Source: Strobilurus pachycystidiatus
Taxonomy: Eukaryota; Basidiomycota; Agaricomycetes; Agaricales; Physalacriaceae
Assembly: GCA_019915135.1 (NCBI GenBank)
Contig: JAHLMK010000006.1
Location: 1,364,001-1,428,000 of the forward strand
Length of the DNA: 64,000 nucleotides
Direction of reading: 5' to 3'
Part shown: in pieces, positions 1 to 36,100 of the stretch
Layout of the letters: the number at the start of each line of letters is the position of its first letter
Position numbering within the stretch: the stretch's first letter is position 1
Notes under the pieces: generated by a model
Database searches by the model: none
Seen by the model: only the letters and a program-made list of their open reading frames with translations
What the model was told of the DNA's origin: nothing
Position numbers and translations under genes: made by a program

Positions 1-561
1 GTGGAAATCGACATTCCCTCGAATGATGACAGCAGGAGGGAGTTCCTCGGCCACTGATTCCATTGCGTCAGGCGAACGTGAAAAGAAATAAAAGGGATGG
101 GCGCACCAGGAGGCAACAGGAGTGCCCAGGCACATACGGCCAACGCGCAGGAAGTTTCACTGCCCTGGGACGGAACGAGCGAAAGACGTCGCCACGCCGG
201 CGGAGGAAGGAACTCGACGTCCTTCACAAGAACGAGTGCGGCGCGCAGAAGAGTAAACTAAAAAGGAAAACGCACCCACGACCCCAGACGTCCAGTCAAA
301 CAATCCCGGCGCGGAATAAATCAACAAACTTACCAAGGCCAGCCACTCCGACGACGACAAGGACTCTAGTCCGAACGAATTATTATTCGTCAATCCATCG
401 TCGACGGCGACGATACATCGTATCCACTCCTCCAGAACGAGGCCCGGGATTCGCGCAGGGCGCGCGTTGATGCGAAAGCCGCGATGATTGACAACCAGGA
501 CGGCGTCAGACGGCGCGGCTGTCGAACGACGCGTGATCAGAGCAAGCAGGGAGGTGGGCAT
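1..561 (-). CDS. Antisense spliced gene inside L element, partial copy
   Basis: Second copy of the predicted three-exon gene at 26375-27133. By alignment the exons lie at 334-561, 138-257 and 1-45, on the strand opposite to L transcription; the rest of exon 3 is beyond the window. The exon 1 reading frame is identical in translation to the other copy, and the gtaagt and gtatgt splice donors are preserved. I do not recognise the protein. See the complete copy for the splice model and doubts. Confidence 0.45.
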
Positions 562-5337: not shown

Positions 5338-5360
5338 CCCCTTTCGACGACCCAACGACT

Positions 5361-18004: not shown

Positions 18005-18113
18005 CTCGACAAAGTTACGAATCCTACTCTGGGTCCCGTCGCGGCCGGTGCCTCCGGGGCTTGGATTCATGAGGTTGGCAAATTTGATTCCTCAGGTCCA
18101 GATTCCAGATCTT

Positions 18114-18963
18114 TGTTACGACCTGGTCCCGCCGTGACATGGACTCGCTCATGAGAGACTACCCCTGTAGTCAACCCATAGCTTTCCTGCGAGCGTACCA
18201 CGTACATCCTCGTATTGTGCTCGACTGGTCGTGCTGTACCAGTCGTAGGGTCCCTCGATGGTCGCACATCCATCTGGTCAGAGACCGAGATACCGTAGGA
18301 ACCTAATCCCAAGGTACAAGGCTCGCCGTCGGACCTAGTCCCAGGTGTGGCGTCGGGGAGCCTTCTCTCGTCGGAGTCAACGACGTTGACGGAGGTATCG
18401 AAGGGAGACATGTGGGTGAGTCCTACCACGGAGAGCTCAGAGTGCCCAACGGAGTTGTATGGGGGAAAACTGGTTAAGGACGAAGTCTGAGTAGCTAGTA
18501 CAGCGTTGTCTCTGTATTTATACTAATCCCATGCTTGCTCATTGTTCCTCTTCTCGAAGCTTCTACCACATACTCCCGATGCGTCGGGAGTGGTCCGACG
18601 CTGCGGATGACGGAGATCCCGTCATCCCGATGACCGCCCGACAGATCGATGACCGCCCATTGGTCGGGAAGGCGGGTTTGGTCGGGTACCGACTCCCGCC
18701 TGACTCACGCGGCCTAAGTATATTCCCGGGGTGTCTTACACCATGTGTGCTCGCTCCAAAGTGTATCCGGGAGGGCGGGAAGCCCGACAAGGGCGGAACT
18801 TCAGGATCCCGGTTCTGTCGCCATAAGGGATCGAACTCTCAACCCCTTGACATATCTCTCGGCATCTTCCGGTGTGGCGCTGGTTCGTGTAGCCGTAGTG
18901 TCAGGACGCCAAAGTGTGACCAAAGTGGAGGGTCTTGATCTACGGTGAGGCCACATCATGACA
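18114..18963 (-). repeat. 3' LTR of complete L element
   Basis: 850 bp. Polypurine tract (aaaaaggggata on the minus strand) lies at about 18964-18976. Left TSD atctt at 18109-18113. Confidence 0.95.
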
Positions 18964-19273
18964 ATATCCCCTTTTTAAGTTTCTCGTCCCGAGAAACGAA
19001 AGAGTGATCTTCTTTATGGGCTCCTACGGTCGCGTCGATGCTTTCTACAAGGCTCCCCGAGCCTTGTTAGAGCAAAAGTGTAGTCGCGGCGGAGGGCGTG
19101 ATGGCTCGGAACCTGCTACGGGAGGGCCGAGACGCGTTTTCCTCGATGAAGACGCGTTCGGAGGAAATTCTGAGTAGACAGAAGTGTTTGTATCGTAAAG
19201 ACGATGTTTTTGTTGTCCGGGTCACGTGATCGATTTTGTGTGGCGTATATTTTCGATACTCGTCCTGAGATGT

Positions 19274-20311
19274 TCGAAGTAAAAGCGGATTCCAAGGGTA
19301 GGGAGCGTTTTCAGAGGCCTCTGCACCTCTCACACTCTCCCTCATACTGTCTGAGCTCACTCAGTACAGTCTGGCAGTGAGCAGCAGTGTTTTCATTGTG
19401 GTATCTCAACTTTCTCCAAATGAGCTCAAAATCATTTGGCAGTAAATCGCAAATCACACAACATCGGTCATAGCTACCATGTTGCTGTTTGCACTCTCAT
19501 GTCTCTCATGATGTCCTCAACTCATCCTATGAGTCTGGTCATGTCACACCATCATGTCCTTGTGTGGTATCAACTTTTCTCCAAATGAGCTCAAATGCAT
19601 TTGCGAGTAATTTCCATTTTTGGAGATGTAGCCTCATGCTACTGACTTCCTTTCTTGACCCACTAGCCTCAAGGCTATCTCCCCTACTTAGGGATGCTAT
19701 CTCCGATCACAGGAGCTGTCAATCATGACAGCATCTGTCAATCATTTCCAGAAGATCACTTCTGATGCCATGTGTTCAGTTACCCATATCTCAGCCATGT
19801 GACATGGAATAACTTCGCACTTTCCCAGGATCAATCTGTCATCATCTGGCCTAGGCCCAGTGCTGTCTGTCAGCTGATGCTGGGTCTAGGGCGCCCCAGA
19901 GTTGCGAGTTTGATCCCCACTGTGTTGCAGCTTGCTTCCTGCCTTCATCTTCGCATTTTGGCTCTGCAAGGTTTGCACACAGTGTCCCTCCAGTTCTGCT
20001 CACAGGAACTGATGCTCCTTTCACCAGTGTACGCTTTGGACAGTCTCTAGCCCTCCCTGCTGTCTGCTACAGCTAGATCTAACTCGATCTTTCACTGCTG
20101 TCCATTGTCACTGGTATGCTTATCCAACTTGATTTCGAGTTGATGCCTTATCTTGTGCACAGTGTCCAATCCCTGCCTGCTCCCACGCTTCCTGATAGCG
20201 TTGCACTTGGGATTCTGTGCACAGGTGTGTCCCCAGTCCACTCTCCATAGGCTACAAGCTCAATTTCGCTTCTGTGCTCAGTTTAGCTTGCTCTGCCTTT
20301 GTTTCTGCTTC
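19274..20311 (+). repeat. N1 A1 segment (about 1.04 kb)
   Basis: Long left repeat, shared with A2. It contains two copies of a 50-bp motif (about 19398-19447 and 19563-19612) and a run of short perfect hairpins (19628-19807). A longer imperfect stem pairs 19850-19860 with 19880-19890. It probably holds the promoter and cis signals. Confidence 0.85.
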
Positions 20312-20357
20312 ATCACCCTTGCTCCTACCTCGCACATCGCTCTGCTCATCCATCTCT

Positions 20358-21770
20358 ATGCCCCTCATCGCTGTCTCTGAGTCCTCCCACGATGATCTCG
20401 ACGTCATTGCCTCTCCTCAGGCCTCCCCTGATCCTGAGGCCTCTCCTGCGCCCCATACCATCATTCCTGACTCTGAGATCGACCGCTCTCGCATCAAGAA
20501 GCTCAGTGAGAAGCTGCAGCTCCTTGTCACTCAGTTCTCTGATGGCACCATCCCTAACCACGCTGAGTTCATGCGTCAAGCACGGCTCACTGGTGCCAGC
20601 GCTCACGAGATGGCCGACTACATTGACCAAGTCACCCAGGTCATCGCTGCTCGACGCGCTGCCCGGGTCGACTCTGCACCTGCTGAGCCCACTGCCGACC
20701 CAGCCACTGTTGCTGCTCGTCAGGTTCAGGAGGAGCAGCAGCGCCAGCACAAGCAGGCTGTCGAGGACGCCGCTTGGGCCGCTCTTGCTGCCAACTTGGA
20801 TGCCCTCGATGCTGAGGGCAACAGAGCAGCACCCGTTGTTCCTAGTCCAAACACCGGTCCTCTCTCTGCTGCCTTGTTTGCCAAGCTCCTTAATCCCACC
20901 TCCACTTCGGAGTCAGGGATTCCTTCCTCCATTCTTGCTGCAGCTCCTCATCTTGCGCAGCTCTCCTCCTTGTCTGATCTCTCTCCACATCTACAAGAGA
21001 CAGACCGCCTCCGCAGACTCTTTAGAGCGGACAAGGATGCAGATGCTGTTGCAGACCTTCTCCGTTCTCTCTCTCATCCTGATCCATTTGCCCATTCCTT
21101 GTGGCGTCTCATTGTCCAAGATCTTTATGTTGACTTTGAGAAACTCCTTGCTTCCTTTGGGTCTCACCCATCTCATCATGATGATGAACCCAAGGACTTT
21201 GGAGGTGGTTATGCTCTTGTGTGCAAGGACCACGTCTCTGCACGTCGGTCTCTTTCCACAGAGTCAGACTGGACCCGCTGCTTTGATGCATGGTCTCGAG
21301 GGGTTCTCCTTGTCTACCCTCACCGGAACAAGGAGTTGGAGAAGTACAGAGCCATTGTGGTGGAGATGTTCCGTGCTTCTGAACCAGATCTTTCATTTCC
21401 TATCCGCTTTGATTGTCAGACTCGTGAACGTTATGCCAAGTCTCCTTTTGAGCTGCATGACCGGTCTCAACTTCATTTCCCTATGCTCTCTGAAATGCTT
21501 CGCTCTCGAGGCAGCCCATCTGCGCTTAAGCGTCCTGCAGCTACTTCAGCTCAGGAGCCGTCTCCAAAGCGTCAGAGGGTTATTTGTCAGAACTGGAATC
21601 TGGGGAATTGTCCCAAGACTCCTTGTGCTTTCAAGAGGATTCATGGCACCTGTTCTGAGTGCGGCGGCAAGCATCCCGCTCGTGACAAAGAACAGTGTCT
21701 TGTCCTCCTCAATGCCCGACGAGCAGTTGCTCATAGCAAGTCGGGTGCTGGAAGCGCAGGCTCAGCCTAG
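20358..21770 (+). CDS. gag: N1 Gag-like protein with CCCH zinc finger
   Basis: 470 aa from the first ATG (20358), just beyond A1; the open frame extends further upstream only through non-ATG codons. The N-terminus is acidic and Ser-rich. The middle has a Gln/Ala-rich stretch (about residues 110-145), then a folded-looking part (about 190-340). The C-terminus has a basic KRQR segment followed by a CX7CX4CX5H finger (from residue 410) and a variant knuckle (CSEC, His, Cys at 447). CCCH fingers usually bind RNA, so a nucleocapsid role is likely by inference. It overlaps pol by 59 nt in the +1 frame. Copies in N2 and N3 are nearly identical. Confidence 0.8.
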   Translation: MPLIAVSESSHDDLDVIASPQASPDPEASPAPHTIIPDSEIDRSRIKKLSEKLQLLVTQFSDGTIPNHAEFMRQARLTGASAHEMADYIDQVTQVIAARRAARVDSAPAEPTADPATVAARQVQEEQQRQHKQAVEDAAWAALAANLDALDAEGNRAAPVVPSPNTGPLSAALFAKLLNPTSTSESGIPSSILAAAPHLAQLSSLSDLSPHLQETDRLRRLFRADKDADAVADLLRSLSHPDPFAHSLWRLIVQDLYVDFEKLLASFGSHPSHHDDEPKDFGGGYALVCKDHVSARRSLSTESDWTRCFDAWSRGVLLVYPHRNKELEKYRAIVVEMFRASEPDLSFPIRFDCQTRERYAKSPFELHDRSQLHFPMLSEMLRSRGSPSALKRPAATSAQEPSPKRQRVICQNWNLGNCPKTPCAFKRIHGTCSECGGKHPARDKEQCLVLLNARRAVAHSKSGAGSAGSA

Positions 21771-23600
21771 AAGCTTATCTGGCTCAAAGCGGAAGGCAGA
21801 AGATGAGCAGTCTGCACCGCGTTTCAAAAGAGGCTATGTTTTTACTTCCAATGTATCATCAGAATCCAAAGCTCCTCCGAGCATTTCTTCCACTTATACT
21901 GCTCCTCCTCTACCTAGACCACCTCAGCAGATCTTAGATGATCCACAGATCCAAGCCTCGCTTGCAGCTGTTGCGGATTACATCCGTGTTGATACTCCTT
22001 TCAATGTTGACCGCATTGAGCACTTGTTGACCAAACATCCCAACCGTCCATTTGTTGATTCTGTCATTTGCTCTCTCCGTCAAGGTTTCTGGCCTTTCCA
22101 TGATGGAGAATGGGAAGCTCATCTCAAAGAGCGCTATGATAACTATGCCACAGAGGCTCAAGATCTTGCAGAACTTCGAGTTTATAGAGATCAAGAGATT
22201 GCAGCTGGTCGCTGGTCTCCAGCTCTTCCAGAGAACTTTGTACTTCTTCCTGGCATGCGCATTTCTCCCATGTTTGTTGGCAGAAAGGCAAACCTCGTGT
22301 TGTCATGGATCATACTGGCAATGGTCTCAATGATGGCATATCCAGAGAAGATGCCAAAGTGCGCTATGATGATGTGCATTCATTTGGTCAACTTCTCAAT
22401 GATGTGCTCAAAGCACATCCAAATGAGGAACTGTTGCTCTTCAAGAGTGATGTATCCAAAGCATTCCTCAACCTTCCTGCCCATCCCATTTGGCAACTTC
22501 ATCAAGTGGTCACTGTGGATGGCAGATACCACATTGTGCGCCGTCTCATTCTGGGCACTCGTGCTTCTCCTCGCTGTTGGTGTTCATTCTCTGGACTTCT
22601 CAACTGGATAGCCTGGGAACTTGGAGTCATTGGTCTTCATGACTATATGGATGACTTCTTTGGCTGGGATTTCAAGCGCAATCTTGTTATGTTTCATGGC
22701 AAACTGCGTCCCCACCGTCAAGTTCAACTTCTTGTCTTTTGGGATCTCATTGGTTGTCCATATGATGACAAGAAGCAGGAGCATGGAGTCACGCTCAAAA
22801 TCATTGGCTTCTGGGTTGATATCCATTCTGGTTCTATCTCCCTCTCTCCAGATTCTCTTGACTCTATGATTACTTCAATCAATGAGTTCTTGGGACAACC
22901 CAAGCCCCCTCTTCAGCAATGGCAGCAACTTGCTGGTTATCTGAATTGGACTCTCAATGTCTTGCCCTGGGCACGCCCAGCTCTCACAGAGCTCTATCGC
23001 AAGATGAGCGGCAAGACCATCCGCTTCAAAGGCATTCCACTCAATGCTGAGGTTAAGCAGGACCTCAGTTGGTTTGTCAAAGTTGCAAAGGATTGCATTG
23101 GCATTCGCTTTGTTGATGCTCAATCTTGGAGTGATGATGAGGCAGATTTCATTGGGTGGACAGATGCTAGCAATTCTGGTCTTGCATTTGTATATGCAGG
23201 CAATGGCTTTGCTTATCAGCTTAAGACTATCACGGGAGTGGACACATTCTTCCGTGAACTTCTTGCCATTTTCTGTCTCATCCACCATGTTGCCTCATTC
23301 AAGATTCCTCCTCGTCGCATTCTGATCCATTCAGACAGCATGGATTCAGTTGCAGTTTTCAACTTCTTGTCTGCATCTCAATCATCACACAATGCCATTC
23401 TGTTGGCAATTGCTGATATTGTGCTGCGCACAGGCATTGATGTGCGAGTTAGACACATCCCTGGAGTTGACAACATCATGGCAGACTTGTTGTCTCGCCT
23501 TCTGTTTGATGATTTTTCCAAACAGTTTCCCTCCTACCGCGTCTGCACATTCCAGCCCCCAAGAGAGCTGGTTCCGGCGCGATGGAGAGAGTGCTTTTAG
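21712..23600 (+). pseudogene. pol: N1 pol (RT-RNase H), broken by 4-bp deletion
   Basis: Starts at an ATG inside the end of gag (MPDEQLLIAS). Reverse transcriptase motifs include DVSKAFLNLPAHP, LILGTRASPRC and the catalytic YMDD (near 22644); RNase H follows with GWTDASNSG, an ELLAI Glu, HSDSMDS and NIMADLLSR. Compared with N2, tctg is missing at about 22279/22280, just before the VMDHTGNG motif, which shifts the frame: the second half is open from 22305. N3 has the same deletion. No methyltransferase domain is present, which favours the Ngaro over the DIRS1 branch. It ends 19 nt inside the recombinase gene. Confidence 0.85.
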
Positions 23601-24595
23601 AGGCCTTGGGCGAGAGGAGAAAGACTGATCCCTCTCGCCCACCTATGGACTTGAAGAAACTAGATGACTTAGTCTTGTATCTACAAGTCCATGCAATTGA
23701 GAAGTCCACTCGTAAGAACTATGCTACTGGTGCCAGAGATTATGCTAGATTCTGTCACAACCACAGCCTTCCTCTGGATCCCACTCCAGAAACTCTATCT
23801 CGCTATATTGCTTATACTTCTCAATTCATTGCCTCTGGCTCCAAATATCTTTCTGGAGCACGTCACTTTCTCAAGGAGTTCTATCCCTCATTCACTGAAG
23901 CTCGAGCTTCTGCTCTAGTGCAAGCTACTATCAGAGGAGCCAAAAAGATCAGAGCCGATCCTGTGAAGCGCAAACCACCTCTGCGCACTTCTCATCTGCA
24001 ACTCTTTGTTGATACTGCAAATGCAACTCTGAGCTATGATGATCTTCTCTTTGCCACTCTTATGGCTTGTGCATTCTATGGCTGTCATCGCATGGGAGAG
24101 CTGTTACAGCCTAATTCCAAAGCACTCAAAGATTGGCGTAAGATCATCAAGAGAGCTTCTCTGCATTTTGAGCCTGGCTATGCAGGTTACAAGCTGCCTT
24201 ATCACAAGGGTGATCAGTTCTATCAAGGAACAGACATGCTCTTCACTCCTCAGAAGATTGCAAACCCGGTTGAGCTTCTCAAGCAATATACCAAACTCCG
24301 AGACAAGCTCCATGGAGCTCGGTCTGCTCTTTTCATTTGTGAGAATGGGACTATTCCCACTCGCAGTTGGTTTGAAAGAAAGTTCTTTGCTCTGGTGGGA
24401 AGAGAGTTTGGAGGTCACTCTGCCCGTTCTGGTGGTGCCACCTACTATGCTGGCCTAGGTCTCTCCGATGCTATCATTCAGGCTTTGGGTCGTTGGTCTT
24501 CAGAGGCCTTCAAGATCTATATCCGTGATAATCCAGCAGTACGTGCTGCACAACAGCTTGCAGCACAGAAGCAAGCCTCCACTTCCAATTCCTAA
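23582..24595 (+). CDS. N1 tyrosine recombinase
   Basis: 337 aa, beginning MERVLLEAL within the end of pol. It is the integrase of this retrotransposon order and acts on circular double-stranded cDNA by Tyr-mediated strand exchange, leaving no target duplication. The N-terminal SAM-like core-binding part covers about residues 20-120. The catalytic set is visible: Arg in CHRMGELL, His and Arg in GGHSARSGG, Trp in LGRWSSEAF and the nucleophile Tyr in KIYIRDNP. Length and motif order are normal for the family. Identical reading in N2 and N3 suggests recent constraint or common origin. Confidence 0.9.
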   Translation: MERVLLEALGERRKTDPSRPPMDLKKLDDLVLYLQVHAIEKSTRKNYATGARDYARFCHNHSLPLDPTPETLSRYIAYTSQFIASGSKYLSGARHFLKEFYPSFTEARASALVQATIRGAKKIRADPVKRKPPLRTSHLQLFVDTANATLSYDDLLFATLMACAFYGCHRMGELLQPNSKALKDWRKIIKRASLHFEPGYAGYKLPYHKGDQFYQGTDMLFTPQKIANPVELLKQYTKLRDKLHGARSALFICENGTIPTRSWFERKFFALVGREFGGHSARSGGATYYAGLGLSDAIIQALGRWSSEAFKIYIRDNPAVRAAQQLAAQKQASTSNS

Positions 24596-24676
24596 CACAA
24601 ATCTCTACTCTCATCTCGCGTCTCGTTCACATCTTTCTCACCACCACCATCCCCCACACACAACATTCATAGCTCT

Positions 24677-24760
24677 CATAGCCAGTCACGATCCGCGTAA
24701 TTTATAGGCCCTTGGGCCCGTTTTAGCCTAACTTCATCTGTGTGAACCTTGAAGCATTGG
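24677..24760 (+). repeat. N1 B1 segment (84 bp)
   Basis: Runs from catagccagtcacg to gaagcattgg and is followed without a gap by A2 (tcgaag...). Contains the perfect hairpin ggcccttgggcc. The B1-A2 junction equals the joined outer ends of the element. Confidence 0.85.
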
Positions 24761-25947
24761 TCGAAGTAAAAGCGGATTCCAAGGGTAGGGAGCGTTTTCA
24801 GAGGCCTCTGCACCTCTCACACTCTCCCTCATACTGTCTGAGCTCACTCAGTACAGTCTGGCAGTGAGCAGCAGTGTTTTCATTGTGGTATCTCAACTTT
24901 CTCCAAATGAGCTCAAAATCATTTGGCAGTAAATCGCAAATCACACAACATCGGTCATAGCTACCATGTTGCTGTTTGCACTCTCATGTCTCTCATGATG
25001 TCCTCAACTCATCCTATGAGTCTGGTCATGTCACACCATCATGTCCTTGTGTGGTATCAACTTTTCTCCAAATGAGCTCAAATGCATTTGCGAGTAATTT
25101 CCATTTTTGGAGATGTAGCCTCATGCTACTGACTTCCTTTCTTGACCCACTAGCCTCAAGGCTATCTCCCCTACTTAGGGATGCTATCTCCGATCACAGG
25201 AGCTGTCAATCATGACAGCATCTGTCAATCATTTCCAGAAGATCACTTCTGATGCCATGTGTTCAGTTACCCATATCTCAGCCATGTGACATGGAATAAC
25301 TTCGCACTTTCCCAGGATCAATCTGTCATCATCTGGCCTAGGCCAGTGCTGTCTGTCAGCTGATGCTGGGTCTAGGGCGCCCCAGAGTTGCGAGTTTGAT
25401 CCCCACTGTGTTGCAGCTTGCTTCCTGCCTTCATCTTCGCATTTTGGCTCTGCAAGGTTTGCACACAGTGTCCCTCCAGTTCTGCTCACAGGAACTGATG
25501 CTCCTTTCACCAGTGTACGCTTTGGACAGTCTCTAGCCCTCCCTGCTGTCTGCTACAGCTAGATCTAACTCGATCTTTCACTGCTGTCCATTGTCACTGG
25601 TATGCTTATCCAACTTGATTTCGAGTTGATGCCTTATCTTGTGCACAGTGTCCAATCCCTGCCTGCTCCCACGCTTCCTGATAGCGTCGCACTTGGGATT
25701 CTGTGCACAGGTGTGTCCCCAGTCCACTCTTCATAGGCTACAAGCTCAATTTCGCTTCTGTGCACAGTTTAGCTTGCTCTGCCTTTGTTTCTGCTTCCCC
25801 ACCCTCCACTCCCTGTAACTGTATCTAGTTTCTTGTATGTACTTGTATTAGTTCGATGTAGTACATAGCCAGTCACGATCCGCGTAATTTATAGGCCCTT
25901 GGGCCCGTTTTAGCCTAACTTCATCTGTGTGAACCTTGAAGCATTGG
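24761..25947 (+). repeat. N1 A2-spacer-B2 segment
   Basis: A2 (24761-25797), 66-bp spacer (25798-25863) and B2 (25864-25947). The same 1.19-kb unit occurs alone as S1, S2 and S3. Confidence 0.85.
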
Positions 25948-26374
25948 CCTCGAGAATGCGCCTTTGATCGTACAGAAATCGATTTTTTCATTGCCGCCGG
26001 CATCGGTCATGATTTCGTCGTTCGAGCTCCCCGAGCTCAGAACAGTACCCGCGCCACGCGCTCGGTACCGTAGTTGTATCCTCTCCGGGCAATCAGGACT
26101 CCCTGCGAGTCAAAACCCCCATCTGAGTGCTCAAGACCCCATATCTGTACCCTCAGATATCCATCTGAGGTACAGATCCCAGGGTCTCGCGGAATGATCT
26201 GCAGAATCATTCAAGTGAGTCTATTCTCTGGACCCAGGTGCGCTTCTTGAAAGCCTATTGCTGATATCCCAGAAGTCCCAGAGATTGGGTGCGGGAACGA
26301 GCGCTTGCGCGCGCAGTTATAATGGCGCCACCCTGGAGAAGGTCCCCAGAACCACTCTCCTACGCCCCGCAACG

Positions 26375-27133
26375 ATGCCCACCTCCCTGCTTGCTCTGAT
26401 CACGCGTCGTTCGACAGCCGCGCCGTCTGACGCCGTCCTGGTTGTCAATCATCGCGGCTTTCGCATCAACGCGCGCCCTGCGCGAATCCCGGGCCTCGTT
26501 CTGGAGGAGTGGATACGATGTATCGTCGCCGTTGACGATGGATTGACGAATAATAATTCGTTCGGACTAGAGTCCTTGTCGTCGTCGGAGTGGCTGGCCT
26601 TGGTAAGTTTGTTGATTTATTCCGCGCCGGGATTGTTTGACTGGACGTCTGGGGTCGTGGGTGCGTTTTCCTTTTTAGTTTACTCTTCTGCGCGCCGCAC
26701 TCGTTCTTGTGAAGGACGTCGAGTTCCTTCCTCCGCCGGCGTGGCGACGTCTTTCGCTCGTTCCGTCCCAGGGCAGTGAAACTTCCTGCGCGTTGGCCGT
26801 ATGTGCCTGGGCACTCCTGTTGCCTCCTGGTGCGCCCATCCCTTTTATTTCTTTTCACGTTCGCCTGACGCAATGGAATCAGTGGCCGAGGAACTCCCTC
26901 CTGCTGTCATCATTCGAGGGAATGTCGATTTCCACCTCCCACTTCAACATTTCTGGCGGTACTTGTCCCGTAGGGACATCGTGACGGCGTTCTGGGCGTC
27001 GACAGATGGGGAGGAAAGGGATCAGTGGGAGGAGAGGGCGAAGACGGAAGGTCTGTCCGAGGCGGGGATGGCGAGCGAGTGGGAGGAGGTGACCGAGGAG
27101 TGGTGGCTCGAGGTGATGGACTTCATTCGATAG
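26375..27133 (+). CDS. Spliced gene on the antisense strand of L element
   Basis: Three exons join in phase: 26375-26602, 26679-26798 and 26891-27133. The donors gtaagt (26603) and gtatgt (26799) are consensus; the acceptors are tttttag and ggccgag. Predicted protein about 196 aa, with a C-terminal half rich in Trp, Glu and Arg (HFWRYLSRRDIVTAFW, then an acidic WEEVTEEWWLEVMDF end). A TATA-like ttataat lies 51-57 bp upstream. It runs opposite to L transcription, so its introns would not be removed during retrotransposition. N1 lies about 430 bp upstream and N2 84 bp downstream, so both nested insertions flank it without touching the frame. I do not recognise the protein. The second acceptor is weak, so the model is tentative. 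Confidence 0.5.
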
Positions 27134-28570
27134 GGTGTTGCCGGATCCTTTCTTGGATTTTTTTATTTCCCGTAGTTCGTGTGGGGATGTATACCACTTT
27201 TGTTTTGTGATACCCCACCAATGCTTCAAGGTTCACACAGATGAAGTTAGGCTAAAACGGGCCCAAGGGCCTATAAATTACGCGGATCGTGACTGGCTAT
27301 GTACTACATCGAACTAATACAGGTACATACAAGAAACTAGATACAGTTACAGGGAGTGGAGGGTGGGGAAGCAGAAACAAAGGCAGAGCAAGCTAAACTG
27401 AGCACAGAAGCGAAATTGAGCTTGTAGCCTATGGAGAGTGGACTGGGGACACACCTGTGCACAGAATCCCAAGTGCGACGCTATCAGGAAGCGTGGGAGC
27501 AGGCAGGGATTGGACACTGTGCACAAGATAAGGCATCAACTCGAAATCAAGCTGGATAAGCATACCAGTGACAATGGACAGCAGTGAAAGATCGAGTTAG
27601 ATCTAGCTGTAGCAGACAGCAGGGAGGGCTAGAGACTGTCAAAAGCGTACACTGGTGAAAGGAGCATCAGTTCCTGTGAGCAGAACTGGAGGGACACTGT
27701 GTGCAAACCTTGCAGAGCCAAAATGCGAAGATGAAGGCAGGAAGCAAGCTGCAACACAGTGGGGATCAAACTCGCAACTCTGGGGCGCCCTAGACCCAGC
27801 ATCAGCTGACAGACAGCACTGGGCCTAGGCCAGATGATGACAGATTGATCCTGGGAAAGTGCGAAGTTATTCCATGTCACATGGCTGAGATATGGGTAAC
27901 TGAACACATGGCATCAGAAGTGATCTTCTGGAAATGATTGACAGATGCTGTCATGATTGACAGCTCCTGTGATCGGAGATAGCATCCCTAAGTAGGGGAG
28001 ATAGCCTTGAGGCTAGTGGGTCAAGAAAGGTAGTCAGTAGCATGAGGCTACATCTCCAAAAATGGAAATTACTCGCAAATGCATTTGAGCTCATTTGGAG
28101 AAAAGTTGATACCACACAAGGACATGATGGTGTGACATGACCAGACTCATAGGATGAGTTGGGGACATCATGAGAGACATGAGAGTGCAAACAGCAACAT
28201 GGTAGCTATGACCGATGTTGTGTGATTTGCGATTTACTGCCAAATGATTTTGAGCTCATTTGGAGAAAGTTGAGATACCACAATGAAAACACTGCTGCTC
28301 ACTGCCAGACTGTACTGAGTGAGCTCAGACAGTATGAGGGAGAGTGTGAGAGGTGCAGAGGCCTCTGAAAACGCTCCCTACCCTTGGAATCCGCTTTTAC
28401 TTCGACCAATGCTTCAAGGTTCACACAGATGAAGTTAGGCTAAAACGGGCCCAAGGGCCTATAAATTACGCGGATCGTGACTGGCTATGAGAGCTATGAA
28501 TGTTGTGTGTGGGGGATGGTGGTGGTGAGAAAGATGTGAACGAGACGCGAGATGAGAGTAGAGATTTGTG

Positions 28571-29584
28571 TTAGGAATTGGAAGTGGAGGCTTGCTTCTG
28601 TGCTGCAAGCTGTTGTGCAGCACGTACTGCTGGATTATCACGGATATAGATCTTGAAGGCCTCTGAAGACCAACGACCCAAAGCCTGAATGATAGCATCG
28701 GAGAGACCTAGGCCAGCATAGTAGGTGGCACCACCAGAACGGGCAGAGTGACCTCCAAACTCTCTTCCCACCAGAGCAAAGAACTTTCTTTCAAACCAAC
28801 TGCGAGTGGGAATAGTCCCATTCTCACAAATGAAAAGAGCAGACCGAGCTCCATGGAGCTTGTCTCGGAGTTTGGTATATTGCTTGAGAAGCTCAACCGG
28901 GTTTGCAATCTTCTGAGGAGTGAAGAGCATGTCTGTTCCTTGATAGAACTGATCACCCTTGTGATAAGGCAGCTTGTAACCTGCATAGCCAGGCTCAAAA
29001 TGCAGAGAAGCTCTCTTGATGATCTTACGCCAATCTTTGAGTGCTTTGGAATTAGGCTGTAACAGCTCTCCCATGCGATGACAGCCATAGAATGCACAAG
29101 CCATAAGAGTGGCAAAGAGAAGATCATCATAGCTCAGAGTTGCATTTGCAGTATCAACAAAGAGTTGCAGATGAGAAGTGCGCAGAGGTGGTTTGCGCTT
29201 CACAGGATCGGCTCTGATCTTTTTGGCTCCTCTGATAGTAGCTTGCACTAGAGCAGAAGCTCGAGCTTCAGTGAATGAGGGATAGAACTCCTTGAGAAAG
29301 TGACGTGCTCCAGAAAGATATTTGGAGCCAGAGGCAATGAATTGAGAAGTATAAGCAATATAGCGAGATAGAGTTTCTGGAGTGGGATCCAGAGGAAGGC
29401 TGTGGTTGTGACAGAATCTAGCATAATCTCTGGCACCAGTAGCATAGTTTTTACGAGTGGACTTCTCAATTGCATGGACTTGTAGATACAAGACTAAGTC
29501 ATCTAGTTTCTTCAAGTCCATAGGTGGGCGAGAGGGATCAGTCTTTCTCCTCTCGCCCAAGGCCTCTAAAAGCACTCTCTCCAT
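28571..29584 (-). CDS. N2 tyrosine recombinase
   Basis: 337 aa, same motifs as in N1: Arg in CHRMGELL, His/Arg in HSAR, Tyr in KIYIRDNP. It overlaps the end of pol by 19 nt. As the 3'-most gene before B1, it would integrate circular cDNA. No defect seen. Confidence 0.9.
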   Translation of the reverse strand: MERVLLEALGERRKTDPSRPPMDLKKLDDLVLYLQVHAIEKSTRKNYATGARDYARFCHNHSLPLDPTPETLSRYIAYTSQFIASGSKYLSGARHFLKEFYPSFTEARASALVQATIRGAKKIRADPVKRKPPLRTSHLQLFVDTANATLSYDDLLFATLMACAFYGCHRMGELLQPNSKALKDWRKIIKRASLHFEPGYAGYKLPYHKGDQFYQGTDMLFTPQKIANPVELLKQYTKLRDKLHGARSALFICENGTIPTRSWFERKFFALVGREFGGHSARSGGATYYAGLGLSDAIIQALGRWSSEAFKIYIRDNPAVRAAQQLAAQKQASTSNS

Positions 29585-31458
29585 CGCGCCGGAACCAGCT
29601 CTCTTGGGGGCTGGAATGTGCAGACGCGGTAGGAGGGAAACTGTTTGGAAAAATCATCAAACAGAAGGCGAGACAACAAGTCTGCCATGATGTTGTCAAC
29701 TCCAGGGATGTGTCTAACTCGCACATCAATGCCTGTGCGCAGCACAATATCAGCAATTGCCAACAGAATGGCATTGTGTGATGATTGAGATGCAGACAAG
29801 GAGTTGAAAACTGCAACTGAATCCATGCTGTCTGAATGGATCAGAATGCGACGAGGAGGAATCTTGAATGATGCAACATGGTGGATGAGACAGAGAATGG
29901 CAAGAAGTTCACGGAAGAATGTGTCCACTCCCGTGATAGTCTTAAGCTGATAAGCAAAGCCATTGCCTGCATATACAAATGCAAGACCAGAATTGCTAGC
30001 ATCTGTCCAGCCAATGAAATCTGCCTCATCATCACTCCAAGATTGAGCATCAACAAAGCGAATGCCAATGCAATCCTTCGCAACTTTGACAAACCAACTG
30101 AGGTCCTGCTTAACCTCAGCATTGAGTGGAATGCCTTTGAAGCGGATGGTCTTGCCGCTCATCTTGCGATAGAGCTCTGTGAGAGCTGGGCGTGCCCAGG
30201 GCAAGACATTGAGAGTCCAATTCAGATAACCAGCAAGTTGCTGCCATTGCTGAAGAGGGGGCTTGGGTTGTCCCAAGAACTCATTGATTGAAGTAATCAT
30301 AGAGTCAAGAGAATCTGGAGAGAGGGAGATAGAACCAGAATGGATATCAACCCAGAAGCCAATGATTTTGAGCGTGACTCCATGCTCCTGCTTCTTGTCA
30401 TCATATGGACAACCAATGAGATCCCAAAAGACAAGAAGTTGAACTTGACGGTGGGGACGCAGTTTGCCATGAAACATAACAAGATTGCGCTTGAAATCCC
30501 AGCCAAAGAAGTCATCCATATAGTCATGAAGACCAATGACTCCAAGTTCCCAAGCTATCCAGTTGAGAAGTCCAGAGAATGAACACCAACAGCGAGGAGA
30601 AGCACGAGTGCCCAGAATGAGACGGCGCACAATGTGGTATCTTCCATCCACAGTGACCACTTGATGAAGTTGCCAAATGGGATGGGCAGGAAGGTTGAGG
30701 AATGCTTTGGATACATCACTCTTGAAGAGCAACAGTTCCTCATTTGGATGTGCTTTGAGCACATCATTGAGAAGTTGACCAAATGAATGCATATCATCAT
30801 AGCGCACTTTGGCATCTTCTCTGGATATGCCATCATTGAGACCATTGCCAGTATGATCCATGACAACACGAGGTTTGCCTTTCTGCCAGACAACAAACAT
30901 GGGAGAAATGCGCATGCCAGGAAGAAGTACAAAGTTCTCTGGAAGAGCTGGAGACCAGCGACCAGCTGCAATCTCTTGATCTCTATAAACTCGAAGTTCT
31001 GCAAGATCTTGAGCCTCTGTGGCATAGTTATCATAGCGCTCTTTGAGATGAGCTTCCCATTCTCCATCATGGAAAGGCCAGAAGCCTTCACGAAGAGAGC
31101 AAATGACAGAATCAACAAATGGACGGTTGGGATGTTTGGTCAACAAGTGCTCAATGCGGTCAACATTGAAAGGAGTATCAACACGGATGTAATCCGCAAC
31201 AGCTGCAAGCGAGGCTTGAATCTGTGGATCATCTAAGATCTGCTGAGGTGGTCTAGGTAGAGGAGGAGCAGTATAAGTGGAAGAAATGCTCGGAGGAGCT
31301 TTGGATTCTGATGATACATTGGAAGTAAAAACATAGCCTCTTTTGAAACGCGGTGCAGACTGCTCATCTTCTGCCTTCCGCTTTGAGCCAGATAAGCTTC
31401 TAGGCTGAGCCTGCGCTTCCAGCACCCAACTTGCTATGAGCAACTGCTCGTCGGGCAT
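29566..31458 (-). CDS. pol: N2 Pol: reverse transcriptase-RNase H, intact
   Basis: 630 aa from the ATG at 31458, which lies inside the end of gag (59-nt overlap, +1 frame). The N-terminal linker is Lys- and Pro-rich. Reverse transcriptase spans about residues 180-400: KGKPRVVMDHTGNG, DVSKAFLNLPAH, LGTRASPRCW, YMDDFFGWD. RNase H (about 490-610) has DASNSG, the ELLAI Glu, HSDS and NIMADLLSR. Unlike N1 and N3 it keeps the four bases tctg before GKPRVVMD, so the domain is continuous. A longer open frame reaches upstream to 32871 but is out of frame with gag over the same DNA and is not the likely start. No aspartic protease motif is visible in gag or pol. Confidence 0.9.
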   Translation of the reverse strand: MPDEQLLIASWVLEAQAQPRSLSGSKRKAEDEQSAPRFKRGYVFTSNVSSESKAPPSISSTYTAPPLPRPPQQILDDPQIQASLAAVADYIRVDTPFNVDRIEHLLTKHPNRPFVDSVICSLREGFWPFHDGEWEAHLKERYDNYATEAQDLAELRVYRDQEIAAGRWSPALPENFVLLPGMRISPMFVVWQKGKPRVVMDHTGNGLNDGISREDAKVRYDDMHSFGQLLNDVLKAHPNEELLLFKSDVSKAFLNLPAHPIWQLHQVVTVDGRYHIVRRLILGTRASPRCWCSFSGLLNWIAWELGVIGLHDYMDDFFGWDFKRNLVMFHGKLRPHRQVQLLVFWDLIGCPYDDKKQEHGVTLKIIGFWVDIHSGSISLSPDSLDSMITSINEFLGQPKPPLQQWQQLAGYLNWTLNVLPWARPALTELYRKMSGKTIRFKGIPLNAEVKQDLSWFVKVAKDCIGIRFVDAQSWSDDEADFIGWTDASNSGLAFVYAGNGFAYQLKTITGVDTFFRELLAILCLIHHVASFKIPPRRILIHSDSMDSVAVFNSLSASQSSHNAILLAIADIVLRTGIDVRVRHIPGVDNIMADLLSRLLFDDFSKQFPSYRVCTFQPPRELVPARWRECF

Positions 31459-32812
31459 TGAGGAGGACAAGGCACTGTTCTTTGTCACGAGCGGGATGCT
31501 TGCCGCCGCACTCAGAACAGGTGCCATGAATCCTCTTGAAAGCACAAGGAGTCTTGGGACAATTCCCCAGATTCCAGTTCTGACAAATAACCCTCTGACG
31601 CTTTGGAGACGGCTCCTGAGCTGAAGTAGCTGCAGGACGCTTAAGCGCAGATGGGCTGCCTCGAGAGCGAAGCATTTCAGAAAGCATAGGGAAATGAAGT
31701 TGAGACCGGTCATGCAGCTCAAAAGGAGACTTGGCATAACGTTCACGAGTCTGACAATCAAAGCGGATAGGAAATGAAAGATCTGGTTCAGAAGCACGGA
31801 ACATCTCCACCACAATGGCTCTGTACTTCTCCAACTCCTTGTTCCGGTGAGGGTAGACAAGGAGAACCCCTCGAGACCATGCATCAAAGCAGCGGGTCCA
31901 GTCTGACTCTGTGGAAAGAGACCGACGTGCAGAGACGTGGTCCTTGCGCACAAGAGCATAACCACCTCCAAAGTCCTTGGGTTCATCATCATGATGAGAT
32001 GGGTGAGACCCAAAGGAAGCAAGGAGTTTCTCAAAGTCAACATAAAGATCTTGGACAATGAGACGCCACAAGGAATGGGCAAATGGATCAGGATGAGAGA
32101 GAGAACGGAGAAGGTCTGCAACAGCATCTGCATCCTTGTCCGCTCTAAAGAGTCTGCGGAGGCGGTCTGTCTCTTGTAGATGTGGAGAGAGATCAGACAA
32201 GGAGGAGAGCTGCGCAAGATGAGGAGCTGCAGCAAGAATGGAGGAAGGAATCCCTGACTCCGAAGTGGAGGTGGGATTAAGGAGCTTGGCAAACAAGGCA
32301 GCAGAGAGAGGACCGGTGTTTGGACTAGGAACAACGGGTGCTGCTCTGTTGCCCTCAGCATCGAGGGCATCCAAGTTGGCAGCAAGAGCGGCCCAAGCGG
32401 CGTCCTCGACAGCCTGCTTGTGCTGGCGCTGCTGCTCCTCCTGAACCTGACGAGCAGCAACAGTGGCTGGGTCGGCAGTGGGCTCAGCAGGTGCAGAGTT
32501 GACGCGGGCAGCGCGTCGAGCAGCGATGACCTGGGTGACTTGGTCAATGTAGTCGGCCATCTCGTGAGCGCTGGCACCAGTGAGCCGTGCTTGATGCATG
32601 AACTCAGCGTGGTTAGCGATGGTGCCATCAGAGAACTGAGTAACAAGGAGCTGCAGCTTCTCACTGAGCTTCTTGATGCGAGAGCGGTCGATCTCAGAGT
32701 CAGGAATGATGGTATGGGGCGCAGGAGAGGCCTCAGGATCAGGGGAGGCCTGAGGAGAGGCAATGACGTCAAGATCATCGTGGGAGGACTCAGAGACAGC
32801 GATGGGGGGCAT
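31400..32812 (-). CDS. gag: N2 Gag-like protein with CCCH zinc finger
   Basis: 470 aa from the ATG at 32812; only a few substitutions from N1 (for example Asn for Asp and Leu for Ser near the C-terminus). Same CX7CX4CX5H finger and variant knuckle. First ORF of the three-gene array, begun about 47 bp beyond A1. Confidence 0.8.
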   Translation of the reverse strand: MPPIAVSESSHDDLDVIASPQASPDPEASPAPHTIIPDSEIDRSRIKKLSEKLQLLVTQFSDGTIANHAEFMHQARLTGASAHEMADYIDQVTQVIAARRAARVNSAPAEPTADPATVAARQVQEEQQRQHKQAVEDAAWAALAANLDALDAEGNRAAPVVPSPNTGPLSAALFAKLLNPTSTSESGIPSSILAAAPHLAQLSSLSDLSPHLQETDRLRRLFRADKDADAVADLLRSLSHPDPFAHSLWRLIVQDLYVDFEKLLASFGSHPSHHDDEPKDFGGGYALVRKDHVSARRSLSTESDWTRCFDAWSRGVLLVYPHRNKELEKYRAIVVEMFRASEPDLSFPIRFDCQTRERYAKSPFELHDRSQLHFPMLSEMLRSRGSPSALKRPAATSAQEPSPKRQRVICQNWNLGNCPKTPCAFKRIHGTCSECGGKHPARDKEQCLVLLNARRAVAHSKLGAGSAGSA

Positions 32813-34305
32813 AGAGATGGATGAGCAGAGCGATGTGCGAGGTAGGAGCAAGGGTGATGAAGCAGAAACAAAGGCAGAGCAAGCTAAACTGAGCACAGAA
32901 GCGAAATTGAGCTTGTAGCCTATGGAGAGTGGACTGGGGACACACCTGTGCACAGAATCCCAAGTGCGACGCTATCAGGAAGCGTGGGAGCAGGCAGGGA
33001 TTGGACACTGTGCACAAGATAAGGCATCAACTCGAAATCAAGTTGGATAAGCATACCAGTGACAATGGACAGCAGTGAAAGATCGAGTTAGATCTAGCTG
33101 TAGCAGACAGCAGGGAGGGCTAGAGACTGTCAAAAGCGTACACTGGTGAAAGGAGCATCAGTTCCTGTGAGCAGAACTGGAGGGACACTGTGTGCAAACC
33201 TTGCAGAGCCAAAATGCGAAGATGAAGGCAGGAAGCAAGCTGCAACACAGTGGGGATCAAACTCGCAACTCTGGGGCGCCCTAGACCCAGCATCAGCTGA
33301 CAGACAGCACTGGGCCTAGGCCAGATGATGACAGATTGATCCTGGGAAAGTGCGAAGTTATTCCATGTCACATGGCTGAGATATGGGTAACTGAACACAT
33401 GGCATCAGAAGTGATCTTCTGGAAATGATTGACAGATGCTGTCATGATTGACAGCTCCTGTGATCGGAGATAGCATCCCTAAGTAGGGGAGATAGCCTTG
33501 AGGCTAGTGGGTCAAGAAAGGTAGTCAGTAGCATGAGGCTACATCTCCAAAAATGGAAATTACTCGCAAATGCATTTGAGCTCATTTGGAGAAAAGTTGA
33601 TACCACACAAGGACATGATGGTGTGACATGACCAGACTCATAGGATGAGTTGGGGACATCATGAGAGACATGAGAGTGCAAACAGCAACATGGTAGCTAT
33701 GACCGATGTTGTGTGATTTGCGATTTACTGCCAAATGATTTTGAGCTCATTTGGAGAAAGTTGAGATACCACAATGAAAACACTGCTGCTCACTGCCAGA
33801 CTGTACTGAGTGAGCTCAGACAGTATGAGGGAGAGTGTGAGAGGTGCAGAGGCCTCTGAAAACGCTCCCTACCCTTGGAATCCGCTTTTACTTCGAACTC
33901 TGATTTTTGGCCGCGTCGTTTTGCTATGATCGACGCGTCGCGTGTGTTTTAACAAACACGTACTAGTGGTGACGGATGATGTTCCTGATTTGCGTGATGG
34001 TCGATCGTTCCCGGAGATATTCTGTCGTCTGACTTATCCTTTAGGATCAGGCGTCCGGATGATGCGAGTGCTTGTTTCGGCGGTGTTCCTGCGGGCATGC
34101 TGATGGGTGATAGACGCTTGTCCTTTGTCGGAAGGTGACGCAGCGTTTCACGGTGCGGGGTTTGCTCATCGGCGAAGGGGGTCGTTCTTTCGACCGGTGG
34201 ATCTGGATTTTTATCACGACAGTCCTCGACTGTTTTTCTTTGCTAGTTTCCATTTCACGTCAGGACTCTCCTCCACGAGGAGATCCACTGTGTCGTCTGG
34301 GTATT

Positions 34306-35328
34306 TTATTCCTGGTTCGTACGGAAAGGCTTTCCGTTGTCGGAATAGAGTACGGAGTGTCGAAAGAGAATGAGTCCTCGACCCAAGGGTTGATCGGGGT
34401 TTGTGGGTTTCTCAGCTTCCGCTCCGTATAGGAGATGTAGGTGGTGCGGGGTGTTGCAAGTTTGTTTTGCACTGTGTAGGTGTACGACCCAGGGATCTAG
34501 GGTGAGGGAAGGGGGGTGATAGAACACCGTGGGATCTAGGCGTGGCTCGGTATAGAATGTCGGGGTTCGTATACGTCGTAGTGGCCCCCGTAGATATCTT
34601 GCCTGAAGAAGGCATAATCCTTCTTTCGTGTGTTGAGATAGATGTTGGGGGGTTCTCCACAGAACTTCCATACATCGTGCCATGATGGGGATATGTCCGT
34701 TTACCAGAGACCGAAGAAGAACCCAGTCTTCCTCTAGTCCCAGCAACCTATAGACCACGTCTATGACCCATGCAGCTCTGCCCAGAAGGCTCCGGTATTG
34801 AGTAGGACCTGATCGTACTGTTGGTTTGAATTCCGCGATGTGGATGGTCAACTCCCTAAGGAGGGAGAGTACTCGATGTTCGGTTCTGCGAGCTCGTACA
34901 AGGGGGGGGATAGTGTCGGAGGTTGTGGTGATTGGAGGCGTTACCCCAACGCCGGGGGAGGGGGGAGGTTCCGATGTAGTGGTACGTGGGCAGTATGGAG
35001 ACTTCGTCCTATTGTTACGACCTGGTCCCGCCGTGACATGGACTCGCTCATGAGAGACTACCCCTGTAGTCAACCCATAGCTTTCCTGCGAGCGTACCAC
35101 GTACATCCTCGTATTGTGCTCGACTGGTCGTGCTGTACCAGTCGTAGGGTCCCTCGATGGTCGCACATCCATCTGGTCAGAGACCGAGATACCGTAGGAA
35201 CCTAATCCCAAGGTACAAGGCTCGCCGTCGGACCTAGTCCCAGGTGTGGCGTCGGGGAGCCTTCTCTCGTCGGAGTCAACGACGTTGACGGAGGTATCGA
35301 AGGGAGACATGTGGGTGAGTCCTACCAC
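34306..35328 (-). CDS. L-element sense ORF that begins inside the LTR
   Basis: 340 aa. The ATG at 35328 (a second at 35310) lies in the R-U5 part of the 5' LTR, downstream of the predicted transcript start (about 35387). About 105 residues are LTR-encoded; the frame then crosses the primer binding site and continues for 235 residues of interior, ending 409 bp before the N2 insertion. The interior part is Arg-, Leu- and Pro-rich, with no zinc knuckle, protease or RT motif. As the only long sense frame of the element it may be a Gag-like protein, but I recognise no family. Other L LTR copies keep the LTR part open. Confidence 0.45.
   Translation of the reverse strand: MVGLTHMSPFDTSVNVVDSDERRLPDATPGTRSDGEPCTLGLGSYGISVSDQMDVRPSRDPTTGTARPVEHNTRMYVVRSQESYGLTTGVVSHERVHVTAGPGRNNRTKSPYCPRTTTSEPPPSPGVGVTPPITTTSDTIPPLVRARRTEHRVLSLLRELTIHIAEFKPTVRSGPTQYRSLLGRAAWVIDVVYRLLGLEEDWVLLRSLVNGHIPIMARCMEVLWRTPQHLSQHTKEGLCLLQARYLRGPLRRIRTPTFYTEPRLDPTVFYHPPSLTLDPWVVHLHSAKQTCNTPHHLHLLYGAEAEKPTNPDQPLGRGLILFRHSVLYSDNGKPFRTNQE
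34999..35010 (-). promoter_or_regulatory. Self-priming primer binding site of L element
   Basis: On the minus strand aggacgaagtct lies 2 nt after the 5' LTR and is perfectly complementary (12 bp) to agacttcgtcct at the predicted transcript 5' end (complement of 35376-35387). The 2-nt 'at' spacer is the same as in the chromovirus. Confidence 0.7.
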
Positions 35329-35862
35329 GGAGAGCTCAGAGTGCCCAACGGAGTTGTATGGGGGAAAACTGGTTAAGGACGAAGTCTGAGTAGCTAGTAC
35401 AGCGTTGTCTCTGTATTTATACTAATCCCATGCTTGCTCATTGTTCCTCTTCTCGAAGCTTCTACCACATACTCCCGATGCGTCGGGAGTGGTCCGACGC
35501 TGCGGATGACGGAGATCCCGTCATCCCGATGACCGCCCGACAGATCGATGACCGCCCATGGGTCGGGAAGGCGGGTTTGGTCGGGTACCGACTCCCGCCT
35601 GACTCACGCGGCCTAAGTATATTCCCGGGGTGTCTTACACCATGTGTGCTCGCTCCAAAGTGTATCCGGGAGGGCGGGAAGCCCGACAAGGGCGGAACTT
35701 CAGGATCCCGGTTCTGTCGCCATAAGGGATCGAACTCTCAACCCCTTGACATATCTCTCGGCATCTTCCGGTGTGGCGCTGGTTCGTGTAGCCGTAGTGT
35801 CAGGACGCCAAAGTGTGACCAAAGTGGAGGGTCTTGATCTACGGTGAGGCCACATCATGACA
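35013..35862 (-). repeat. 5' LTR of complete L element
   Basis: 850 bp, TATA box near 35415-35422 on the minus strand. One visible difference from the 3' LTR. Right TSD atctt at 35863-35867. Confidence 0.95.
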
Positions 35863-36100
35863 ATCTTGTTAGTTGCCGGCGTGGCTTGCAGCTTACTACA
35901 AGGGCTGACGCTCCCCGCCCTTTCCCTCCCTCCTCGTTGGCGGGCGCCTTGCTGGTCGTTGAGTGTGCTGCCTGCCTGCCGCCTGCCTTTCGTGAATGTT
36001 TCCTCCCTCTTCTCTGTGTTTCCTCTCCCTTTTGTGTCGGCTGTTGTGTCGTAATTGCGCGCCGCGCTGAAGCGCACTTAATTTGCTTAGCTTCGCGGCA

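What the first reader, a model, noticed from the sequence alone, without database searches (positions are those of the whole stretch)
26375..27133. Predicted intron-containing gene on the antisense strand of an LTR retrotransposon
The L interior holds three exons in phase with consensus donors gtaagt and gtatgt, running against L transcription. Introns on that strand are not spliced out of the L RNA, so a spliced gene can travel intact. The exon 1 frame is identical in translation in both L copies. Both nested N insertions flank the gene and leave it uncut. A non-autonomous retroelement carrying a passenger gene in antisense would be a notable cargo system.
Basis: partly seen in the sequence, partly recalled or inferred. 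Interest (0 to 1): 0.75.

Follow-up and report, generated by a model that had tools for sequence, protein, structure and literature searches.

The report
Spliced antisense gene in fungal-type retroelements
A family of small jumping elements carries a working-looking, intron-containing gene written against the element's own reading direction, kept intact by selection, and a single-copy relative of that gene sits elsewhere in the same genome, so its origin and its role can be tested.

Summary
The gene is real. At 26375-27133 (+) lies a three-exon, 209-aa gene, antisense to a non-autonomous LTR element ("L"). One correction: intron 2 starts at 26830, not at the gtatgt at 26799, which breaks the frame. 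It is not a chance passenger. The 49 PBS-PPT intervals of 2.69-2.75 kb found in the genome all carry it, always antisense. They form two subfamilies whose interiors share almost no DNA similarity, yet the gene (27-32% aa identity) has both introns at matching places and phases. dN/dS is about 0.15. 24 of 33 aligned L1 rows and 10 of 10 fetched L2 copies are open. 10 of 17 LTR pairs are identical, so the elements are young, but gene alleles differ by dS up to 0.9. Diversity peaks over the gene and the non-coding stretch beyond it, with strong signs of recombination. A single-copy locus, C1:1954400-1955300, holds a relative with the same exon structure; its flanks could not be read. Antisense accessory genes are known (Grande, Retand, Boty brtn), so this is a new variant. 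Function is inferred: an element-serving accessory protein.

The parts
18109..18113 (.). target site duplication ATCTT, left
   Evidence: direct reading; matches 35863-35867
18114..18963 (-). 3' LTR of L (850 bp)
   Evidence: 1 difference in 850 from the other LTR
18964..18979 (-). polypurine tract (sense CTTAAAAAGGGGATAT next to the 3' LTR)
   Evidence: reading; junction pattern recurs genome-wide
18964..19270 (.). L interior piece A, no gene recognised
19268..25947 (+). nested N insertion (interrupts L, not part of it)
   Evidence: absent in L009 and other L copies
25948..26374 (+). upstream/promoter region of the antisense gene (TATA-like ttataatgg at 26317-26325 by eye); 92-100% identical in the full-length matches although the gene there differs by up to 26%
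26375..26602 (+). antisense gene, exon 1 (76 codons, ends in phase 0)
26603..26678 (+). intron 1 (GTAAGT...TTAG)
26679..26829 (+). exon 2 (151 nt, ends in phase 1)
   Evidence: also exactly 151 nt in L055
26830..26882 (+). intron 2 (GTGCGC...TCAG; GTGAGT in most relatives)
26883..27133 (+). exon 3 with stop TAG
27218..33901 (-). nested N insertion (interrupts L, not part of it)
34306..35310 (-). sense ORF of L, 334 aa, starting inside the 5' LTR; homologous to the L2 sense ORF (33%, E 1e-16)
   Evidence: no Pfam match
34999..35010 (-). primer binding site AGGACGAAGTCT, perfect complement of 12 nt at 35376-35387
35013..35862 (-). 5' LTR of L (850 bp)
35376..35387 (-). predicted 5' end of the L transcript (AGACTTCGTCCT), 34 nt after TATAAATA (35421-35414)
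   Evidence: start site predicted, not mapped
35863..35867 (.). target site duplication ATCTT, right
1..561 (-). second L copy: part of the antisense gene (the rest lies left of the window; whole copy = L009)

Best explanation
L is a family of non-autonomous, probably self-primed LTR retroelements with two protein genes facing each other: a sense ORF (334 aa) starting inside the 5' LTR, and a spliced antisense gene (209-230 aa) with its own upstream promoter region, lying between the sense ORF and the 3' LTR. Shown by sequence: anatomy, presence in 49 of 49 complete intervals, shared introns, purifying selection, youth and recombination. Inferred: the LTR-driven minus-strand RNA is what is copied, so the antisense introns pass through unspliced; the gene is transcribed from its own promoter, spliced, and makes a protein that helps the element that carries it (regulation, nuclear transport, protection from silencing), with some cis-preference, because defective copies have not taken over. 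The mobilising enzymes come from another LTR element in the genome. The gene was probably taken from, or given to, the host once, before L1 and L2 split; a single-copy relative with the same introns survives.
For: Gene model and intactness. Frame-specific constraint: dN/dS median 0.15 over 98 of 105 pairs (dS>0.1); other frames 0.28-2.22; differences at codon positions 1,2,3 = 1137, 814, 2879. Constitutive: 49 of 49. L1-L2-L055 homology with matching introns: (E 6e-16 L1-L2, 6e-31 L1-L055, 8e-24 L2-L055). LTR element: TSD in 16 of 17, LTRs identical in 10 of 17; PBS-leader complementarity 12 nt; PPT. Non-autonomous: 49 of 63 PBS sites have an interior of only 2.7 kb. Selection acts through the replicating lineage more than on single insertions in L1: singletons N:S 29:16, not different from neutral (p 0.41), far from omega 0.15 (p 1e-7); 9 of 10 elements with identical LTRs have an open gene.
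Against: No RNA or protein evidence. The host's name and relatives were not available, so phylogenetic spread is unknown. In L2 the singletons are 7N:9S, below neutral (p 0.026), which would fit selection on single copies too. Cis-preference is an inference from few broken copies. No autonomous partner was identified, and one is not excluded: of the 14 PBS sites without a 2.7-kb interval, 7 have a PPT 6.8-29 kb away and 7 have none within 40 kb, and I read only the window copy, L042 and L043 of these over any length. PPT group D sites look related but the one read in part (L054, 4.5 kb) showed no ORF above 125 codons and no gene. The sense ORF's identity as a Gag is not shown.
Confidence: 0.72

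Rival explanations
1. Host-beneficial cargo: the element carries a gene that is useful to the host, and selection on the host keeps the copies.
For: Strong long-term constraint; a single-copy relative outside L as far as seen; L2 singletons below neutral.
Against: Dozens of copies; L1 singletons indistinguishable from neutral; the L1/L2 form of the gene stays with the element: of 68 hit entries (40, 28 condensed by me) 49 lie in complete intervals, 14 beside other L pieces by the coordinates, and 5 (C6:2087090 and 2087749, C19:120097, C19:137669, C12:1517665) were not placed.
Confidence: 0.15
2. The antisense transcript, not the protein, matters (RNA-level control or siRNA source), and the reading frame is incidental.
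For: Antisense RNA control is discussed in PMC7264820 (passages); the upstream region is among the best conserved parts.
Against: dN/dS is lowest, 0.15, in the gene frame, introns are free to change in length and sequence (about 50% identity between distant alleles), introns match in L1, L2 and L055.
Confidence: 0.05
3. The single-copy locus L055 is not a host gene but a decayed or domesticated relic of a third element subfamily, so the gene's origin is inside retroelements.
For: L1 and L2 are less like each other than either is to L055, which also fits a slow relic.
Against: No PBS, PPT, L1 LTR, reverse transcriptase or integrase match near it (nearest listed RT about 86 kb away; searches scored only part of their candidates), single copy over 901 bp, frame and splice sites intact over the part read.
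Confidence: 0.35
4. The high diversity of the gene region needs no special selection: old L lineages exchanged their ends by template switching, leaving old centres.
For: PHI test 0 of 500 shuffles reach the observed value; diversity falls at both ends, and the peak includes non-coding DNA beyond the gene.
Against: Does not by itself explain why many old gene lineages persist in recently expanded backbones.
Confidence: 0.6

Closest known systems
Antisense additional ORFs of plant Gypsy elements (maize Grande gene23, rice RIRE2, Silene Retand TRP28)
   Same: Antisense gene between the sense coding part and the 3' LTR, in most or all copies, own promoter in Grande, no clear homologues for most, function unknown (passages and sections 5 and 6 of PMC7264820, passages of PMC11963269).
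   Different: Those elements mostly have gag-pol (some Retand are non-autonomous); the word 'intron' occurs 0 times in both main texts. TRP28 and other Pfam domains were not found here. PMC7264820 argues from a lack of similar genes outside the elements; here one candidate exists.
Boty/BcGypsy1 of Botrytis cinerea with antisense gene brtn
   Same: Fungal LTR element with an additional antisense gene (PMC8365987 and PMC4227169 passages; section 5 of PMC7264820).
   Different: Boty-like elements encode gag-pol with a chromodomain (PMC4227169 passage). The original paper (Zhao 2011) was seen only as a reference entry, so introns and sequence of brtn could not be compared.
Tf1-type self-primed LTR retrotransposons
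   Same: PBS complementary to the predicted start of the element's own transcript (12 nt).
   Different: Tf1 is autonomous; here start site and priming are predicted only (Tf1 features recalled).
HTLV-1 HBZ
   Same: Antisense gene of a retroelement with a role in the life cycle of its own element (PMC11963269 passage); that it is spliced is recalled.
   Different: Autonomous virus of people; no sequence relation tested.
Gene-transducing LTR elements such as maize Bs1
   Same: LTR element with a possibly host-derived gene.
   Different: Transduced pieces are usually in sense orientation and in one or a few copies (PMC7264820 abstract and section 6).

Membership tests
LTR retrotransposon | paired LTRs TG...CA and 5-bp target duplication | tested here: met
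   17 LTR pairs measured, 16 with perfect TSD (4 of the 20 fetched copies had no full pair)
LTR retrotransposon | PBS after the 5' LTR and PPT before the 3' LTR | tested here: met
   patterns read backwards as control gave 4 and 0 matches against 63 and 76
LTR retrotransposon | encodes gag-pol (autonomous) | tested here: not met
   49 of 63 PBS sites have a 2.7-kb interior. Three intervals of 6.8-7.3 kb hold L gene pieces and no RT or integrase match (both scored in part); four are 16-29 kb, two of which hold RT and integrase matches; seven sites have no PPT partner, two of them read without pol. So non-autonomous in all copies read; an autonomous copy is not excluded
Tf1-type self-priming | PBS complementary to 5' end of own RNA | tested here: inconclusive
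   12-nt complement 34 nt downstream of TATAAATA; start site not mapped; 4 of 1094 interior 20-mers match the LTR equally well
Elements with antisense additional ORF (Grande/Retand/Boty type) | antisense gene between sense coding part and 3' LTR in most copies | tested here: met
   49 of 49 intervals
Elements with antisense additional ORF (Grande/Retand/Boty type) | sequence relation to gene23, TRP28 or brtn | tested here: inconclusive
   no Pfam match, so none to TRP28 PF04195 if that model is in the copy used; gene23 and brtn sequences not held
TR-GAG / LARD non-autonomous elements | only gag, or no coding capacity | tested here: inconclusive
   sense ORF of 334 aa without Pfam match and with a useless fold prediction; the antisense gene is an extra that these classes lack (recalled)
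Host-gene transduction | homologous single-copy gene outside the element | tested here: inconclusive
   L055 found, single copy, same exon structure; flanks and direction unknown

The most novel reading that the evidence does not exclude
The antisense gene is a specificity cassette taken once from a host gene: its protein acts on the element that encodes it (for example self-recognition, copy-number control or escape from silencing), and old allelic lineages are kept by balancing selection and swapped by recombination between otherwise nearly identical elements, much as lambdoid phages swap immunity regions.
Probability: 0.15. Interest if true: 0.85.

Novelty: new variant of a known kind. Interest (0 to 1): 0.62.

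Why it matters
Antisense genes in LTR retrotransposons have been described since the 1990s (Grande, RIRE2) without a settled origin or function; the review PMC7264820 (section 6) says that the origin of most of them remains unknown and points to the lack of similar genes outside the elements. Here the gene keeps its introns, shows clear selection, exists in many young copies of very different alleles, and has a single-copy relative with the same exon structure in the same genome. That makes origin (synteny of L055), splicing (RNA-seq) and purpose (copies with and without an intact gene) directly testable. It also shows how an intron-bearing gene can ride a retroelement: on the strand whose introns are not seen in the copied RNA.

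Tried and rejected
Rejected: chance ORF. Tried without result: Pfam on the gene, L2, L055 and sense ORF (only DUF1488 at E 0.084, below cut-off); homologues among 5.8 billion proteins with L1, the L1/L2 profile and L055 (none), which is weak because the share of fungal proteins in that collection is unknown to me and only candidates sharing words are scored; PDB profile search (none); Rfam on the window at gathering scores (none); fold prediction of the sense ORF (pLDDT 39.8) and of exon 3 alone (66.3, four helices), too weak for a fold search, so none was run. Search for an autonomous partner: L042 and L043 are L stumps beside a satellite and other DNA; L054 of PPT group D showed no ORF above 125 codons; by eye the RT and integrase lists (both scored in part) show none within 5 kb upstream of a group D site, the nearest being 5.3 kb away on C18. 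Rows dropped: L041 (two blocks) from the gene alignment; five of the 40 gene matches were never fetched; L012, L015, L018 and L019 had no full LTR pair; 7 pairs with dS<=0.1 from the dN/dS median; one L2 copy (L050, in-frame deletion) from the singleton count. In one search the mean identity of the upstream region over all pairs is only 84%, because L012 and L032, whose upstream DNA is mostly not L, are among the 15 rows. The large self-comparison printed added nothing.

Full report
WHAT IS THERE. Window self-comparison shows an LTR element, L, spanning 18114-35862, interrupted by two copies of a 6.7-kb element N at 19268-25947 and 27218-33901; a second L copy starts left of the window and ends at about 2147. 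LTRs are 850 bp with one difference and the target duplication is ATCTT. On the minus strand the order is 5' LTR, PBS, sense ORF, gap, antisense gene, conserved upstream region, PPT, 3' LTR. The PBS AGGACGAAGTCT is a perfect 12-nt complement of AGACTTCGTCCT in the LTR, 34 nt after TATAAATA, as in self-primed elements of the Tf1 type (Tf1 recalled; as a control, 4 of 1094 interior 20-mers match the LTR as well, so this is good but not conclusive).

THE GENE. Exons 26375-26602, 26679-26829 and 26883-27133 give 209 aa. DNA of the gene has 40 matches in the 51.8-Mb, 61-contig genome (a lower bound). Besides the window copy I fetched 20 of them with flanks and 13 short pieces holding 14 more; five were not fetched. 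In the 33 aligned rows (window plus L009-L040; L041 left out) 24 are open from ATG to stop, and 9 are broken or cut: L010, L012, L017, L018, L031, L032, L038, L039, L040.

A SECOND SUBFAMILY. Patterns for the PBS junction (63 sites; 4 with the pattern reversed) and PPT junction (76 sites; 0 reversed) pair into 49 intervals of 2687-2754 bp: 27 of L1 type, 1 of a divergent L1 type, 21 of a type L2. All 49 contain a gene hit, all antisense. Of the other 14 PBS sites, 7 have a PPT 6.8-29 kb away (one is the window copy, stretched by N) and 7 none within 40 kb. Ten L2 interiors were fetched: blastn finds similarity to L1 only over about 48 bp at the PPT end and 25 bp at the PBS end, but they hold a homologous gene (230 aa; 10 of 10 open and with splice sites, one with a 12-nt in-frame deletion) and a homologous sense ORF (33% over 172 columns, E 1e-16). 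Of the 68 gene-hit entries given to, 19 lie outside the 49 intervals: by coordinates 14 of these, the window copy included, are beside other L pieces and 5 entries I did not place.

A SINGLE-COPY RELATIVE. Protein queries found one further locus, C1:1954687-1955136. The 901 bp fetched (L055) show the same three exons; intron 1 falls in the same alignment column, intron 2 within two columns beside a gap, phases 0 and 1 as in L1 and L2, exon 2 exactly 151 nt as in L1. Identity is 38% to L1 (E 6e-31) and 34% to L2 (E 8e-24), against 27% (E 6e-16) for L1-L2. The start of its exon 1 lies outside the piece. It is single-copy over 901 bp, and no PBS, PPT, L1 LTR, integrase or RT match lies near it. 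Searches scored only part of their candidates (40 of 189, 150 of 176, 150 of 234), so this absence is not complete.

SELECTION. Among 15 L1 alleles (three of them broken) 98 of 105 pairs have dS>0.1; dN/dS median 0.15, range 0.07-0.24; the highest dS of the 15 pairs printed is 0.91. With 11 alleles the gene frame gives 0.15 and the other five frames 0.28-2.22. The lowest of the others, 0.28, is a reverse frame, which I take to be the one whose wobble positions overlap best. Young changes look different: singletons within five L1 clusters are 29 N and 16 S, not distinguishable from neutral (p 0.41), while L2 has 7 N and 9 S (p 0.026). So in L1 the constraint seems to act on the lineages that go on replicating, not on each insertion; in L2 this is less clear. 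The sense ORF is 333-334 aa in 15 of 19 rows, with dS at most 0.12 and median dN/dS 0.51 over 117 pairs, a much weaker signal.

YOUTH AND MOSAICS. Of 17 measured elements 10 have identical LTRs and 16 a perfect duplication; 9 of the 10 have an open gene. Yet alleles of the gene are very old relative to the backbone: for W and L036 the 427 bp upstream are 99% identical while dS is 0.86 and introns are 49-55% identical. Mean pairwise diversity of 11 of the 15 complete interiors aligned is 0.01-0.065 in the first 700 bp; 0.18-0.26 in the four windows from 901 to 1300 (introns and exon 2), 0.135 and 0.085 over exon 3, 0.245 just beyond the gene, 0.13-0.15 to 1900; and 0.014-0.046 from 2101 to 2600. 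W and L013 are identical through intron 1 and then fall to 63% in intron 2, a clear breakpoint. PHI on 26 distinct rows and 320 informative sites: 0 of 500 shuffles reach the observed value. Recombination is thus well supported; balancing selection is only one possible reason for the old alleles, and since the peak includes non-coding DNA, end-exchange alone may do.

MECHANISM. Established knowledge: LTR elements copy an RNA made from the 5' LTR, and introns on the other strand are not recognised in it. All 33 L1 rows and 10 L2 copies read keep both introns, so the spliced antisense mRNA is not the template. Inference: the gene has its own promoter (the region upstream is among the best conserved parts of the interior and has a TATA-like word about 50 bp before the ATG, by eye), its product serves the element, and cis-preference keeps it intact. 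The mobilising partner is unknown; the genome holds many RT (150 matches listed) and integrase (136) matches.

COMPARISON. Seen: passages and sections 5 and 6 of PMC7264820, passages of PMC11963269, PMC8365987 and PMC4227169; the original brtn paper only as a reference entry. The arrangement antisense gene between sense coding part and 3' LTR is the known one. New here, as far as my eight searches of the open library show: a family seen only in non-autonomous form, two conserved introns, deep allelic diversity, and a relative outside the elements.

Noticed in passing
window 19268-25947, 27218-33901, 39556-46190, 51383-55719: N is a 6.7-kb element (the last copy partial) with RT-like and tyrosine-recombinase-like reading frames (by eye DIRS-like; the only Pfam hint is Phage_int_SAM_4, E 0.013, below cut-off). 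Parts of about 1.19 kb occur alone at 37657-38848, 46441-47629 and 60079-61272, like solo terminal repeats.
   Followed up: partly
window 4904-10890: Direct repeats of 422 bp (99.8%) at 4904-5325 and 10469-10890 enclose RT (7703-8188) and integrase (9326-9622) matches: a Gypsy-type LTR element, with one TGA in the RT match.
   Followed up: no
G000 C1:390437 and 12 other places (group D): PPT-LTR junction TTGAGGAGGGGATATTGTCATGATG, like L's, without a pairing L PBS; one (L054) has about 125 bp at 80% to part of L's sense ORF region and no ORF above 125 codons in the 4.5 kb read.
   Followed up: partly
L042, L043: L stumps with 330 and 582 bp of interior next to a long tandem satellite (L042) and next to DNA with KDZ-transposase-like words (L043, by eye).
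   Followed up: no
window 58288-58760 and 62785-63257: Inverted repeat of 473 bp, 99% identical.
   Followed up: no
G000 C1:4033110-4033869 and C20:66793-67524: Divergent L1 genes (48-60% aa identity to the query) in elements whose upstream region is 93-94% identical over 377 bp: further alleles of the same cassette.
   Followed up: no
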